In this document: in pieces, positions 57,298-63,601 of the stretch
Layout: every line of letters begins with the position of its first letter
How positions within the stretch are numbered: the first letter of the stretch is position 1
Virus record (IMG/VR): IMGVR_UViG_3300047472_000309
Span: 62,001-126,000 of that record
Source of the DNA: a virus
DNA length: 64,000 nt
Direction: 5' to 3' (one strand)
The notes under the pieces: model-generated
What the model saw: the letters and a program-made list of their open reading frames with translations, nothing else
The model's database searches: none
Told to the model about the DNA's origin: nothing
Translations under genes and position numbers: made by a program

Positions 57298-59427
57298 ATG
57301 AAACGACGCATGAGCCTGGAGAGCATTGCTGCTCTGGGTATGGAATCCTTCGACTCGTCCCCCACAGGCAATGTTCAGCCGACGATGCAGGGCGAAACCC
57401 CGGAGCAGCCCCTCATCACCGCAGGCTACAACGAATCACCCTTCAGTGGTTCGGAGAACTATGCAGCGGAGAAGCTGGCCCAGCGAGTCAAGGAAGCCAT
57501 CGAGAAGCCGCTCTTTCCGGTGCGCTACGCTTCGGAAGCTGACGCCATCGTGGTGGACGACGATGAATTCGACGCGCTGATTCGTTCCTCGACAGCTGCC
57601 ACGTCGGTCTGGGACGACGACAGCCAGGTCTCGCTTGAAGCCAAGGACAGCAACAAGCTGGCGGTCGCCAAGAACAAGCTGCACGGGCGCTTTAAGAAGA
57701 TGTTTGAGGGCTGGAAAGATGGCTGGCGCACCATGCCCGGTCTCATCAAGAAGTACGAGGCACGGCTCGCCGAGCTGCAGAAGGAACTCAACGGCACGAT
57801 CATCCGCGGCCCGCTCGATGTGAATCTCTCGGGCCTGTGGCAGCACTTCTCCAACGACGCCGGTCCGATCCACAACAACTTCATGCACAAGGTGCAGGAG
57901 GACTTGGCGTTCTCGAGCTATATCCTCGGCGACTTCTCCAAGGAAGCGATGGCTCAGCTGCGTAAGCTGGAGATGGCCCTGCACACGGGTCAAGGCAACT
58001 CCGACGAAGAAGCCAAGCGCACAGCACTGGATCTCGAGAAGCTCGAAGCCCCCTCGATGTACCTGGACCACAAGTGGATGTGTGTCTCGGGTGAGCAACC
58101 GTATCTGTCGGTCACGGGTATCTACGCCAACCAAGGGCGTGTGCCGCGTCCCGTGGCGATTGGTGGCATGTCGATGGAGAAGCTCGCCAAGATGGCGATG
58201 CCGTTCCATGTACGCGAGTACGGCTCATTCCTGCACGGCATGAAGAAGCTCTTCGTGAACGGTAGCAAGGCGAACGTGCGTTTGACTGAGAACGATCTGG
58301 AGAACCTGCTCAAGGCCGGTCAGACGTACCTGGAAGGTGCGCGCAGCTACATGGATAACTACCATAACAGCTGGCCGATCTTCCGGCGTATTGACGAGTC
58401 GCTTGAGCTGATCTGGAAGGACTTCGATCTGACGGACTACTCGATCACGCTGGGCGATGAAGAGGACGAAGACGCCGTGGAAATCAGCTGGCAGACGTCG
58501 GGTACCGGTGACGTGACACGCCGCGCTGCCCTCTACGACCAGATCCTGATGGTGGTGCAGAACTTCGCCGACTCAGTGGTCGCACCGGGTAGCCACGAAG
58601 CGCATCGCGCGGTGCGGGCAGCGAAGTTCCACTGCTACTTGCTCGAGGCTGCGCTGAAGGCCGCGAAGTCAGCGGCGATGGAAAGCGAGAGTCTTGCGAT
58701 GGAAGCACGCGGCTTTAAGGGTCTGCAATTGGCTCAGGAGTTCTTCTGGAACAATAAGCCTCACAAGCCTGAGGAATACGTGGCGCCTAAGTGGAAGGAC
58801 ATCCCGAAGCCGCAATGGGACCCGAAGCACCCGCCCTCAATCGCTGAATCGGTGAAGGCCCTGCGTGCTGCTATGCAAGAGCACGATCCCGAAGCTCTCA
58901 AGACGTTTAATCGTCCGGCGACTCCTCAGGAGCTGCAAAAGCTCGAAGCCCTGGTCAAGCAACACACCGGCAAAGGTTTGCCCCCGCAATTGGTCGAGCT
59001 GTACAAGATCTCCAATGGCGGTGTGGATAGCTACCGCCACCTGCGTCTGTTTGACTTCGATGATTTCATGCCGATTCAGCAGGTCATCCAAACCTACGAG
59101 TTGTTCTTGCACTTGACCGAGAATGACTGGGCGGGTGACGAGTCGGAGATTGAAACCGGTATGCAAGGCAAGCGGTATTGGGAACCATGGTGGATTCCCT
59201 TCACCGCCAGCGGTAGTGGCGACCATTTCTGCGCGGATGTGAATCCGGGTGGCGGTGGGCAAACTGGTCAGGTGATCGACTGGTGTCATGATTACCACGC
59301 TCGTCGGGTGGCTGCCCCGAGTATTGCAGCATTCTTGGCGATGTCGATTCATCGTCAGTTATACCTGATCCAACACAAGAAGGATTGGGACGCCAAGAAC
59401 GGTGGCGGGCAAGCAGCACAGAAGTAA
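57298..59427 (+). CDS. Inner-body-like virion protein fused to a SUKH (SMI1/KNR4) domain
   Basis: 709 residues. The N terminus MKRRMSLESIAALGMESF has S-L-E at 6-8, and S112-L-E114 is followed by a Lys-rich amphipathic segment (KLHGRFKKMFEGWKDGW), the processing pattern of the other inner-body candidates. A helical middle follows. Residues about 538-690 are a SUKH domain: TPQELQKLEALV, LPPQLVELYKISNGGV, LRLFDFDDF, YWEPWWIPF, GDHFCADVNPGGGGQTGQVI and a closing FLAMS helix. SUKH domains are toxin-immunity proteins in bacteria. If the protein is ejected with DNA, the domain could neutralise a host factor. Confidence 0.75.
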   Translation: MKRRMSLESIAALGMESFDSSPTGNVQPTMQGETPEQPLITAGYNESPFSGSENYAAEKLAQRVKEAIEKPLFPVRYASEADAIVVDDDEFDALIRSSTAATSVWDDDSQVSLEAKDSNKLAVAKNKLHGRFKKMFEGWKDGWRTMPGLIKKYEARLAELQKELNGTIIRGPLDVNLSGLWQHFSNDAGPIHNNFMHKVQEDLAFSSYILGDFSKEAMAQLRKLEMALHTGQGNSDEEAKRTALDLEKLEAPSMYLDHKWMCVSGEQPYLSVTGIYANQGRVPRPVAIGGMSMEKLAKMAMPFHVREYGSFLHGMKKLFVNGSKANVRLTENDLENLLKAGQTYLEGARSYMDNYHNSWPIFRRIDESLELIWKDFDLTDYSITLGDEEDEDAVEISWQTSGTGDVTRRAALYDQILMVVQNFADSVVAPGSHEAHRAVRAAKFHCYLLEAALKAAKSAAMESESLAMEARGFKGLQLAQEFFWNNKPHKPEEYVAPKWKDIPKPQWDPKHPPSIAESVKALRAAMQEHDPEALKTFNRPATPQELQKLEALVKQHTGKGLPPQLVELYKISNGGVDSYRHLRLFDFDDFMPIQQVIQTYELFLHLTENDWAGDESEIETGMQGKRYWEPWWIPFTASGSGDHFCADVNPGGGGQTGQVIDWCHDYHARRVAAPSIAAFLAMSIHRQLYLIQHKKDWDAKNGGGQAAQK

Positions 59428-59542: not shown

Positions 59543-60283
59543 ATGAGCCAAACCGACGAGCTGGCACAATGGCTCGAGACTGTGCCCGAAAAAGTTCGTA
59601 AGAACGTGTCGATTGTGACCCCGGTTGAAGTGAAGCAAGACTTCTTCCTGCACATTTCCACGGCCACGAACATCAAGAAGTTTATCCCGTTAATTGGGCG
59701 CCGTCAGGCTTATAGCGAGGATCGTACCGTCCCACGCGTAACGGTGGCTCCTACGCTGCTGGGGTGCTTGATCGGCTACGCGAAGGCCGACCATGACTTT
59801 CGCGAGTACCATTCCACGGGTAAACCCGAACACGGTAACTACAAAGGCGGCTGGAAGATTTACGCGCTCCCTTTCGAAGCAGCCTTAAAACCGAATGCGC
59901 GCATGGTGTACGATGCGCAAGCAAGCGACGAGCACTGGCTGGTGTCGTACTCACGGGAAACCAACGAGTACATCCCGCAAGCGGCGGGTAAGATGTTCTA
60001 CCGGTCACTGCGCCTGATCGGTCGCTCAGGAAAGAAGCCTGCCGGGGAGATGGAGTTGTATGTGGAAGTTACAAAAGAAGACGGGCTTCGTTTTAGTAAG
60101 TCCCACTTCCTCAATCCCGGCTACTACCGCGTGGTTGGACCCGTGCAAGAAAACGTCGCCAGCTGGAAAGACGATAGCGAGTATGTGGTCACCCCCATCG
60201 ACAAGGATGACTACCTCTCCGCCAAGAACGCAGCCGCCGACCTCTTGGGATTCAAAGATCCCCCACCCCATCAGCAGTGGTAA
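59543..60283 (+). CDS. Hypothetical protein, possibly with an ADP-ribosyltransferase-like N terminus
   Basis: 246 residues; the ATG has no clear ribosome binding site. FFLHISTATNIKKFIPLIGR and the segment DRTVPRVTVAPTLLGCLIGY resemble phage proteins with a Tpt1/PARP-like start (H-x-[ST] strand, then P-R-V), but no catalytic set was confirmed. The rest is a beta-rich domain (GEMELYVEVTKEDGLRFSKS). It is 4 bp upstream of the ADP-ribosyltransferase candidate and between inner-body genes, so packaging or ejection with DNA is possible. Confidence 0.55.
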   Translation: MSQTDELAQWLETVPEKVRKNVSIVTPVEVKQDFFLHISTATNIKKFIPLIGRRQAYSEDRTVPRVTVAPTLLGCLIGYAKADHDFREYHSTGKPEHGNYKGGWKIYALPFEAALKPNARMVYDAQASDEHWLVSYSRETNEYIPQAAGKMFYRSLRLIGRSGKKPAGEMELYVEVTKEDGLRFSKSHFLNPGYYRVVGPVQENVASWKDDSEYVVTPIDKDDYLSAKNAAADLLGFKDPPPHQQW

Positions 60284-60286
60284 GAA

Positions 60287-61009
60287 ATGAAAAAACCGAC
60301 CTACCTGGAATGGGCGAATTCGCAGATTCGCCCGGTGGCACTCGAAGCACTGGTGCTCGAAGAGCTCGCCCTGGAAAAGGAAGCCACTTTCGACGAAGTG
60401 TATAAGAAAAGTGGCTGGATGAAGAAGATCGGCATGAAGCTGGTCAGTCTGTTTGGCTATGTCCCTGACCTTGCCTTCCAAAAGGAAGACGTGGACATGC
60501 ATGTAGTCCAGCAGATACTCCAGCACAAGGAGCTGCTCCAAGCGGTCTCGGACTGGATCTCGGACACCAACTACGAGTTGCTGCCCAAGCTTCATGAAGC
60601 CAAGAAGGTGTTCGAAGCCATCCAGCGACCCAAGCCCCATCCGATTCTGTACCGGGGCTTCAAGATCAATCCGGGCCAACAGAATTCGGGGATCGCTGAG
60701 CGCTACAAGCAGATGAAGCCGGGTGACAAGTGGCAGCATACTCCGGATAAGCCCATGTCTTTCTCCTGGCATCAGGGGACCACGCGCGCATACGGCGACA
60801 TTATTGTCAGTGCGAACTATAACGCGCTGGCTAAGCGCTGTCTGCACATCACCAACGAGATGGTGGCGGCGCTCTTTCATCTGGACCTGGACGGCAACAT
60901 CGATCCTAACTACGAGATGAAAGCCGAGGCGTACATCTTCACGTACGCTGAGAGCGTGTTCCTGCCTGACGGCAAGCCGATCGAATTCACCCTCGTCTCC
61001 AAGGGTTAA
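60287..61009 (+). CDS. Putative R-S-E class ADP-ribosyltransferase
   Basis: 240 residues. HPILYRGFKINPG contains R123 in the Y-R-G motif; DKPMSFSWHQGTTRAYG has S158-F-S160 (S-T-S-like); NYEMKAEAYIF has E214 where the catalytic Glu of E-x-E would fall, but the preceding acidic residue is replaced by K212. The order and spacing are those of bacterial ADP-ribosyltransferases such as T4 Alt/ModA. The altered E-x-E motif means that activity or target may differ. The N-terminal 100 residues are helical. It lies between inner-body genes; T4 Alt is likewise a virion-carried enzyme that is ejected with DNA. Confidence 0.5.
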   Translation: MKKPTYLEWANSQIRPVALEALVLEELALEKEATFDEVYKKSGWMKKIGMKLVSLFGYVPDLAFQKEDVDMHVVQQILQHKELLQAVSDWISDTNYELLPKLHEAKKVFEAIQRPKPHPILYRGFKINPGQQNSGIAERYKQMKPGDKWQHTPDKPMSFSWHQGTTRAYGDIIVSANYNALAKRCLHITNEMVAALFHLDLDGNIDPNYEMKAEAYIFTYAESVFLPDGKPIEFTLVSKG

Positions 61010-61030: not shown

Positions 61031-62266
61031 ATGAAATCCTTTAACATGCGCGCCGCGCTCGAAGCGCGCCCGATTGAAGACCAAGATCTGGAAGACACCG
61101 CCAAGCCTGCGCCGGACGCAGGTCAGATCGATGGCGACACCACGACGCTCTCCGGCATGGCCAAGCCCGGTCAGAATCCGGTGCCCGATACGGAAAACGT
61201 CGCTACTGAAGGCACTGAGAAGATCGATACGCGTCCGGTGGATCTGGACGATGTCGTCTTGCTCGAGCAAGATCGCCGCGCCTTTGAGCCGCAGTCGGAA
61301 GGCAGTGCTGAGCACGATGCGATCAACGCGCAGAACATCGCCCAGGAAGGCTGGATCAGCAAGAAGTTCGAGAATGTCAAGGACTTCTTCATGCATCGTG
61401 AGAAGGAACTCGAAGATGGCCACACAGCCACCAAAGAGAACCTGGAAGCGATTGCGCGCCTGCGCACCAAGTTGCAAGTACGCGCGGGTGAAGTCACCCG
61501 CGATGCGGACACCGTCACGATCAGCAAGTACGCCAAGTGGCTCTCGATCGACGGCAAACACATCACCGATCCCGCGCGACTGATTCGTGAACTGCAACGC
61601 GTCTACGAGCTCGTGCAATGGTCGGGCAATCTGGATAAAGCCTGGCTCGAGGGCTACAAGTTCGTGGCGGACCAGATCTGGAAGCTCGGCGAGACGGACC
61701 TGAAGAAGGCCAACGAGAATCTGAAGAAGATGTGGGAAGTCACGCGGCCGCAAGGCGCCGAGAAGTGGCTCACGGTTAACAAGCCGGTCCAGTTCAAGGG
61801 CAAGGAATACATCGACAAGCATTCGCCGTTCTTCCTCGGTCAGTGGTGCGTCTTTGAGATCTCCCAAGAAGAAGACAACCATGCACCGGGCGGGATTGTT
61901 GAAATCCAGCGCATGAAGTCGATGAAGGCTGTCGGCGGGGGTGAATTCCCGGCGTTGACCAAGGCCCAGATGAAGCAAGTGCTCGACATCTGTGAAAAGA
62001 TCGAAGCGCATCTGGTGTCCATGACCTTCGATGGCCGCATCATCGATCGTTATCTGGACGCGCTGGATGAATTCGCGTATCGCTATCGCAACTTCAAGTC
62101 GCTGTCGCGCGAAGACCAGACACTCGCTTCGCGTCTGTATGCCTGGGGCCAGCTCATCATGCAGCACGACACGACTTTCCTGCCGACGGCTTTTAGCAAC
62201 CACCTGGTGAAGGTGATGTTGAGCTACGTCGAGAAGTCGATGCGTCGCATTGAAGTCGATCAGTAA
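61031..62266 (+). CDS. Inner-body/ejected virion protein candidate
   Basis: 411 residues. The N-terminal 100 residues are acidic and Pro-rich (propeptide-like). A104-Q-E106 followed by GWISKKFENVKDFF matches the shared processing motif and amphipathic start; the next gene has the identical A-Q-E-G. The remainder is helical with no enzymatic motif. In phiKZ the inner body proteins are cut by the prohead protease in the same way. 21 bp after the ADP-ribosyltransferase gene and 12 bp before the next, so co-transcribed. Confidence 0.65.
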   Translation: MKSFNMRAALEARPIEDQDLEDTAKPAPDAGQIDGDTTTLSGMAKPGQNPVPDTENVATEGTEKIDTRPVDLDDVVLLEQDRRAFEPQSEGSAEHDAINAQNIAQEGWISKKFENVKDFFMHREKELEDGHTATKENLEAIARLRTKLQVRAGEVTRDADTVTISKYAKWLSIDGKHITDPARLIRELQRVYELVQWSGNLDKAWLEGYKFVADQIWKLGETDLKKANENLKKMWEVTRPQGAEKWLTVNKPVQFKGKEYIDKHSPFFLGQWCVFEISQEEDNHAPGGIVEIQRMKSMKAVGGGEFPALTKAQMKQVLDICEKIEAHLVSMTFDGRIIDRYLDALDEFAYRYRNFKSLSREDQTLASRLYAWGQLIMQHDTTFLPTAFSNHLVKVMLSYVEKSMRRIEVDQ

Positions 62267-62278
62267 AAGGAGTCCCTC

Positions 62279-63601
62279 GTGGAAGAAGTCAATCAAGAAG
62301 CGACGATCGTCACCCTGAGTGATGACGTCGAATGCAATCGCCTGAACGATGCGCTCGATAAGCTGGGCGAGTTGGGTACGCGACTGCAAGCAGACGGTCA
62401 ACTGACAGTCGACGTGGCGCTCGAACATCAGGCCCTCACCGGTAGCAATACCCTGGTGAATACCTACTACAGCACGCTCGGCAAGCAACAGAAGCTCAAA
62501 GTGGCTCAGGAAGGCCTCTACGAGCAAGCCAAGAGCCTGCTGAAGAAGGCGATGGACCTGCTGTGGGAAATGATCGTCAAGGTCTGGAAGTGGCTGCAAA
62601 AGCTCTTTGTGAATGGCGTGCCCATGACCGAAGCAGCCCTCGCCCGCGAGAACGAGAAGTTTAAGTCCTTCGTGATGCCGGTGCAAAAAGCCGAACGGGT
62701 TCCGAGTTCACGCACTGCCATCATCCAGGCTGTCCGGGAAGAAGGCCTGAACGAAGCGTTCGTGAGCAAGCTCACTCCGGAAGAGATGGACATCTACAAC
62801 GAGGGTCCGTACCATCAGGCAGTGCAGCGCATGATTCCGGCGCTGGATGGCTTCAATGTGGCGAGTGTCGTCGAGACGCTGGTGAAGTGGCACGAGAAAT
62901 GGTTGCCTGCCGGTCGCCAGTTTGATCAGGACAACGCAGGGGCTGATCCCCATGCGCTTCAGGACAAGCTGGAACGCTTCCAGAAGGACGCTCAGACCGA
63001 TCTGGAGCACGCGACCTCCATGGCTACCAAGCTCATGCAGATCCGCCTGGAGAGCTACCAGACGGCTGTGGAAGCCCGTCGAAAACTGAAGGTCGATCCG
63101 AACTTCCATCTCGGTACCGATCTCTCGGGCATCATGGCGCGTGGTGTGCGCATCTACGACCAGTCGGGCTACAAGAAGATGGGTTCGGCCCTGACCGATG
63201 TCTTCAAGTCCCTCGACTCAACGGTCAAGAAGATGGAGTCGATTCGCACCAAGGCCTACCAGAATCCGATGCCCAACGACCATGGCGGGGCCAAAGCGGG
63301 CGAGGAGTGGATCGAGCAGATCTACATGAAGGAAGTCAATCGGATCATTTCGACGCTGCATCAGTGCGTCTCGATGATTCAGTTGATCAACAACTACTAC
63401 TCGTTCGTGGTTGGCTCGGGCAAAACCATCATGAAGTACGTGATGACGGTGGCGCAGAAGGCCATTCAGCACGGTGGTGATGCTGCCTCGCTGCAAGAAA
63501 TCGTGCGTAGCGGTAGTTCGGCACTGATGGGCATGGCTGCAGATGGTTCGCAAATGGCAGCGCAGCAACAAGCTGCCGGTATGCAAACCGACATGGGTTA
63601 A
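62279..63601 (+). CDS. Inner-body/ejected virion protein candidate
   Basis: 440 residues starting at GTG (GGAG, 6 nt). A76-Q-E78 precedes GLYEQAKSLLKKAMDLLWEM, a long amphipathic helix (WEMIVKVWKWLQKLF continues it), suggesting membrane contact after processing. The C-terminal half is a long helix bundle, ending in a Met/Gln/Ala-rich tail (QMAAQQQAAGMQTDMG). Same operon as 61031-62266. Confidence 0.65.
   Translation: MEEVNQEATIVTLSDDVECNRLNDALDKLGELGTRLQADGQLTVDVALEHQALTGSNTLVNTYYSTLGKQQKLKVAQEGLYEQAKSLLKKAMDLLWEMIVKVWKWLQKLFVNGVPMTEAALARENEKFKSFVMPVQKAERVPSSRTAIIQAVREEGLNEAFVSKLTPEEMDIYNEGPYHQAVQRMIPALDGFNVASVVETLVKWHEKWLPAGRQFDQDNAGADPHALQDKLERFQKDAQTDLEHATSMATKLMQIRLESYQTAVEARRKLKVDPNFHLGTDLSGIMARGVRIYDQSGYKKMGSALTDVFKSLDSTVKKMESIRTKAYQNPMPNDHGGAKAGEEWIEQIYMKEVNRIISTLHQCVSMIQLINNYYSFVVGSGKTIMKYVMTVAQKAIQHGGDAASLQEIVRSGSSALMGMAADGSQMAAQQQAAGMQTDMG

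What the first reader, a model, noticed from the sequence alone, without database searches (positions are those of the whole stretch)
60287..61009. Putative virion-carried ADP-ribosyltransferase with altered E-x-E
R123 (YRG), S158-F-S160 and E214 occur in the order of R-S-E transferases, but K212 replaces the first acidic residue. Its position between genes for candidate ejected proteins parallels T4 Alt. The lysine change may mean a different target (for example a nucleic acid or Asp/Glu rather than Arg) or loss of activity.
Basis: partly seen in the sequence, partly recalled or inferred. Interest (0 to 1): 0.65.

Follow-up and report, generated by a model that had tools for sequence, protein, structure and literature searches.

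The report
Giant phage's probably injected ADP-ribosyltransferase

Summary
The 240-aa ORF at 60287-61009 is real. By fold it is an R-S-E (ARTC) class ADP-ribosyltransferase. Models of it and of a homologue hit ADP-ribosyltransferases: all 50 listed rows for the ORF, all but the related Tpt1 for the homologue. The closest relative is an unannotated Ralstonia phage RP12 protein (42% identity). Nine further jumbo-phage homologues share R123-G124, S158 and E222.

K212 and E214 lie in an insertion missing from every homologue that could be aligned. The conserved Glu is E222; two residues before it stands Tyr220, where relatives have Gln (six), Glu (two) or Met. So the first acidic residue is absent, but there is no lysine change.

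Virion carriage is inferred, not shown. The gene sits in a tight cluster of phiKZ-type internal head genes and has a ~65-aa N-terminal extension with two ALE sites. N-terminal [AS]LE marks 5/9 phiKZ internal proteins against 2% of other ORFs, and AxE is the prohead-protease motif in a related phage. This phage has that protease, a virion RNA polymerase and PhuZ. FLC9, its closest listed relative, lacks the gene.

Best reading: an Alt-like injected ART with a non-arginine target. Activity and target are untested.

The parts
60287..61009 (+). ART gene, 240 aa
   Evidence: ART fold
60287..60475 (+). N-terminal extension (residues 1-63), putative prohead-targeting propeptide plus linker; absent from all alignable homologues
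   Evidence: low model confidence
60338..60346 (+). ALE-20, candidate prohead-protease site (AxE)
   Evidence: motif from PMC10052503
60368..60376 (+). ALE-30, candidate prohead-protease site (AxE)
60476..61006 (+). ART domain (residues 64-240)
60653..60655 (+). R123, motif 1 (YRGF), NAD-binding arginine
   Evidence: invariant
60758..60760 (+). S158, motif 2 (SFS)
   Evidence: invariant
60911..60937 (+).
60944..60952 (+). Y220-A-E222, actual motif 3; E222 is the predicted catalytic glutamate
57298..59427 (+). SUKH-1 domain protein with internal-head-like start (MKRRMSLES)
59543..60283 (+). Upstream neighbour, phrog_5043, unknown function
61031..62266 (+). Probable internal head protein, ALE near its N-terminus
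   Evidence: phrog_12254 E 0.002
62279..63601 (+). Probable phiKZ_IP internal head protein
   Evidence: PF12699 E 3.7e-4, below the curated cut-off

Best explanation
The protein is an R-S-E (ARTC) class mono-ADP-ribosyltransferase of a phiKZ-like, probably nucleus-forming phage. SHOWN by computation: ART fold; invariant R123, S158, E222; tight co-directional cluster with internal head proteins; N-terminal extension with two A-L-E sites. INFERRED: the extension steers the protein into the prohead, is trimmed after ALE-20 or ALE-30 by the phiKZ-type prohead protease, and the mature ART rides in the head and enters the cell with the DNA. There it would bind NAD+ (R123, S158) and use E222 to transfer ADP-ribose before phage genes are expressed or the phage nucleus forms, disabling or redirecting a host protein or nucleic acid. 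Because the residue two before the catalytic Glu is Tyr (Gln in most relatives), arginine is an unlikely acceptor. It works like T4 Alt (virion-borne ART); membership of the Alt family is not shown.
For: Fold. Catalytic residues. Weak Pfam DRAT hits in four of eight homologues and ADPrib_exo_Tox in one. Cluster with internal head proteins. Prohead protease present. N-terminal [AS]LE in 5/9 phiKZ internal proteins against 7/366 other ORFs, and the ART has it twice; protease motif AXE in SPN3US (PMC10052503); propeptides as targeting sequences (PMC5694885).
Against: No virion proteomics. The N-terminus has no longer similarity to internal head proteins. About 2% of unrelated ORFs also carry [AS]LE. 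Homologues in other phages lack the extension and mostly lie elsewhere. Structure Z-scores are middling and Foldseek PDB E-values for the ORF weak. Activity and target untested; Tyr two before the Glu is unusual.
Confidence: 0.55

Rival explanations
1. An active ART made in the infected cell and not packaged; its place among head genes is incidental.
For: Homologues lack the N-terminal extension and most sit in other contexts; T4 ModA and ModB are such enzymes (general knowledge), and a ModB is among the structure matches.
Against: Extension with two ALE sites, and neighbours on both sides in an internal head cluster.
Confidence: 0.25
2. A packaged or unpackaged ART-fold protein without enzymatic activity, used as a structural or binding protein.
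For: Tyr at the place of Glu/Gln; second position of motif 2 is SW instead of TT in most relatives.
Against: R123, S158 and E222 all kept; no amino-acid change between two contigs; CteC shows that an R-S-E type enzyme can work without the Glu/Gln-x-Glu motif (PMC11281641).
Confidence: 0.15
3. One reading: the active site is K212-x-E214, a lysine-substituted E-x-E.
For: E214 comes in the right order after R and S.
Against: No homologue has the segment; score at chance level; helix, not strand.
Confidence: 0.03

Closest known systems
phrog_29772 / Ralstonia phage RP12 protein A0A1L7N0U9 (211 aa, 'uncharacterized')
   Same: Closest relative: PHROG E 5e-50 over residues 36-240; RP12 protein 42% identical in the structure library, E 3.8e-17. 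That RP12 is the PHROG member is my inference from the length of 211.
   Different: About 30 residues shorter; record not held, so its motif 3 and N-terminus could not be read.
T4 Alt (virion-borne ART); ModA and ModB
   Same: ART fold, with ModB and ModA of T4-like phages among the structure matches; inferred packaging with a trimmed N-terminal propeptide, as Alt's (PMC5694885).
   Different: No sequence match to Alt found; Alt not among listed matches (not evidence of absence); Alt's propeptide is 10-20 residues while here it would be 20-30 or more; different motif 3; the host phage brings its own RNA polymerase.
C3-type and ExoS-type ARTs (ARTC)
   Same: Same R-S-E fold; most homologues share the Gln-x-Glu of the C3 type.
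   Different: About 9-15% identity; the window protein has Tyr at the Gln place; bacterial rather than eukaryotic host cell.
phiKZ / SPN3US inner-body (ejection) proteins
   Same: Same cluster; N-terminal [AS]LE or AxE.
   Different: No phiKZ_IP domain match in the ART itself.

Membership tests
R-S-E class ADP-ribosyltransferase (ARTC) | ART fold | tested here: met
   All 50 listed rows are ARTs, Z 5.5-7.1; homologue model pLDDT 84, 49 of 50 rows ARTs plus Tpt1
R-S-E class ADP-ribosyltransferase (ARTC) | Motif 1 Arg, motif 2 Ser, motif 3 Glu | tested here: met
   R123, S158, E222 invariant in the family; E222 position
R-S-E class ADP-ribosyltransferase (ARTC) | Glu or Gln two before the catalytic Glu | tested here: not met
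   Tyr220 in this protein; Gln in six, Glu in two, Met in one of the homologues. Treated as a variable, specificity-setting position, not as a bar to the fold class.
R-S-E class ADP-ribosyltransferase (ARTC) | NAD-dependent transfer | not testable with these tools
   needs biochemistry
Virion-borne Alt-like ART | Present in the virion and injected | not testable with these tools
   indirect only:
Virion-borne Alt-like ART | N-terminal targeting propeptide cut by the prohead protease | tested here: inconclusive
   ALE-20 and ALE-30, protease gene present, background rate 2%
T4 Alt family by sequence | Sequence homology to Alt | tested here: inconclusive
   No Alt in the tblastn lists or the listed structure matches; Alt was not compared directly
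phiKZ_IP internal head protein (PF12699) | phiKZ_IP domain | tested here: not met
   ART itself has no hit; neighbour 62279 and three genes at 260-264 kb do

The most novel reading that the evidence does not exclude
Some nucleus-forming jumbo phages, although they bring their own virion RNA polymerase, also inject a protease-matured ART with an unusual non-arginine active site (Y/Q-x-E) that modifies a host protein or nucleic acid in the minutes before the protective nucleus exists, for instance to blunt a defence; the ART would be a swappable payload of the internal-head gene cluster.
Probability: 0.3. Interest if true: 0.72.

Novelty: new variant of a known kind. Interest (0 to 1): 0.5.

Why it matters
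phiKZ-like phages eject a large mass of head proteins whose functions are mostly unknown. A recognisable enzyme with an internal-head type N-terminus would give that cargo a concrete early host-takeover activity, at a stage when the phage DNA is not yet shielded. A published survey found ARTs most often in jumbo phages without their own RNA polymerases (PMC7824862), so one in an RNAP-carrying phage suggests a target other than promoter choice. The members of this ART family found in annotated records are 'hypothetical protein' or not annotated at all.

Tried and rejected
K212/E214 as the active site: rejected. Vibrio phage 2.275.O hit H3 (E 8): the ORF annotated there lacks the motifs; chance. 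DUF5312 match of the ORF: chance level. Sequence similarity of the N-terminus to internal head proteins: none beyond the motif. Sequence searches of solved structures: nothing relevant. NCBIfam and PADLOC: nothing for the ART. Homologues in bacterial genomes: none in two scans, which rest on short peptide patterns. Conserved neighbour genes across distant homologues: none beyond the DnaB-like helicase shared by this phage, FLC9 and pEa_SNUABM_54. LucasX (helicase 46% identical) shows no annotated ART and not this cluster downstream of its helicase; not searched with the ART itself beyond tblastn. RP12/RP31 records not held. T4 Alt was not among the listed structure matches; that shows nothing.

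Full report
WHAT IS THERE. The window is part of a 310,654-base virus record. Its nearest listed phage is Burkholderia phage FLC9: 79% DNA identity over part of the helicase genes and a DnaB-like helicase 96% identical in protein. The record has a phiKZ-type prohead protease, phiKZ_IP internal head proteins, a virion RNA polymerase beta' homologue and a homologue of a phage tubulin. It is therefore a phiKZ-like, probably nucleus-forming jumbo phage. A second IMG/VR contig is 99.6% identical over 9.7 kb, with one silent difference in this gene.

FAMILY. The ORF matches phrog_29772 (unknown function) at E 5e-50. tblastn found pEa_SNUABM_54 and BONAISHI, and from these SXP01 (an unannotated ORF) and Eowyn. 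An alignment search of viral contigs added L014-L017 and a further scan L019. Invariant columns in nine sequences are, apart from the first Met, W90, R123, G124, S158, G170, E191 and E222. A profile of eight homologues without the ORF scores it at 86.6 bits, aligned over residues 64-197. Four of eight homologues hit Pfam DRAT and one hits ADPrib_exo_Tox, all weakly (best 0.0087 and 0.0092). Each hit alone is not significant; the recurrence of one ART family across members is the point.

FOLD. AlphaFold on the ORF with five viral-contig homologues gave pLDDT 69.7, with residues 71-200 mostly 73-92 and residues 1-63 low. Foldseek against the PDB was weak (best E 0.025), but nearly all leading rows are ARTs. 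The structural realignment lists 50 entries, all ARTs, Z 5.5-7.1, rmsd 3.5-4.2 over 122-143 residues. These Z values are middling and the tool warns of that; the homogeneity of the list is the argument. The homologue P0008 modelled better (pLDDT 84.2) and gave an ART domain at Foldseek probability 1.00, and 49 ARTs plus the related Tpt1 in 50 realigned rows. In the viral library the best match is Ralstonia phage RP12 A0A1L7N0U9 (211 aa, 42% identity, E 3.8e-17); further down come ADP-ribosylase, ModB and ModA proteins of T4-like phages.

MOTIF 3. The local profile alignment stops at residue 197, so motif 3 was tested separately. A 12-column matrix from the homologues gives 12.1 for the window on E222 and 0.75 for that on E214. 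Shuffling the C-terminal 43 residues reaches the former in 0.4% and the latter in 56% of trials; against shuffles of the whole protein E222 has P=0.05. Secondary structure agrees: E214 in helix 209-217, E222 at the start of strand 222-225. So the triad is R123-S158-E222 and the residue two before the Glu is Tyr220. In relatives it is Gln (six), Glu (two: L017, L019) or Met (Eowyn). Gln at this place recognises guanine in ScARP; C3, which modifies Asn, has Gln; iota toxin, which modifies Arg, has Glu (PMC11281641, PMC6628389). Tyr is unusual, and I cannot say which acceptor it favours.

VIRION CARRIAGE. Neighbours: 62279-63601 matches phiKZ_IP (E 3.7e-4, below the curated cut-off), 61031-62266 an internal head protein PHROG (E 0.002), and 57298-59427 has a SUKH-1 domain and an internal-head-like start. 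The ART starts 3 nt after one gene and ends 21 nt before the next. In FLC9 the two flanking genes are 4 nt apart with no ART between them, and none was found elsewhere in that genome. The gene is thus an optional unit at a gene boundary; whether it was gained here or lost in FLC9 is open. Its GC3 equals the neighbours', so composition gives no sign of a recent arrival.

The N-terminal ~65 residues are absent from all alignable homologues; RP12's could not be read. They hold the protein's only two AxE triplets, ALE-20 and ALE-30. In SPN3US the prohead protease cuts after AXE (PMC10052503), and giant-phage propeptides are thought to target proteins to the prohead (PMC5694885). I took the pattern [AS]LE within the first 35 residues from phiKZ: 5 of 9 phiKZ_IP proteins against 7 of 366 other ORFs. 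FLC9 gives 3/4 against 14/959. In this genome it is 2/4 against 20/875, and those 20 include the ART, 57298 and 61031. A tighter pattern, chosen after looking at these proteins, returns 8 of 879 ORFs, six of them head or cluster proteins including the ART; it is descriptive only. No longer similarity to internal head N-termini exists. I rate packaging at about 0.7.

MECHANISM AND STATUS. Packaging, trimming, ejection and transfer to a host target form a chain of inferences by analogy with T4 Alt. Phage ARTs, including those of jumbo phages, are known (PMC7824862), so this is a new variant of a known kind rather than a new kind. That FLC9 lacks the gene argues that it is accessory, which fits a host-range or counter-defence role; that too is inference.

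Noticed in passing
57298-59427: SUKH-1 (SMI1/KNR4) domain, otherwise typical of toxin-immunity proteins, at the C-terminus of a probable internal head protein; also matches PADLOC PDC-M40A. FLC9 gp96 has two such stretches and gp97 is related to it.
   Followed up: partly
L007:7947-8513 (Shewanella phage SXP01): An unannotated homologue of the ART lies directly downstream of the head maturation protease gene and other virion structural genes.
   Followed up: partly
G000:C1:222028-222471 (L038): A second, short prohead-protease-like stretch with an in-frame TAA, recalling the cryptic protease paralogue described in SPN3US (PMC5694885).
   Followed up: no
G000:C1 ORF ending 262775 (- strand, 761 aa): phiKZ_IP protein with a very long Ala/Glu/Gly-rich N-terminal region holding many AxE triplets.
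   Followed up: no
Achromobacter phage Motura (structure library): Four uncharacterized proteins of one phage match the ART model, three of them at probability 1.00.
   Followed up: no
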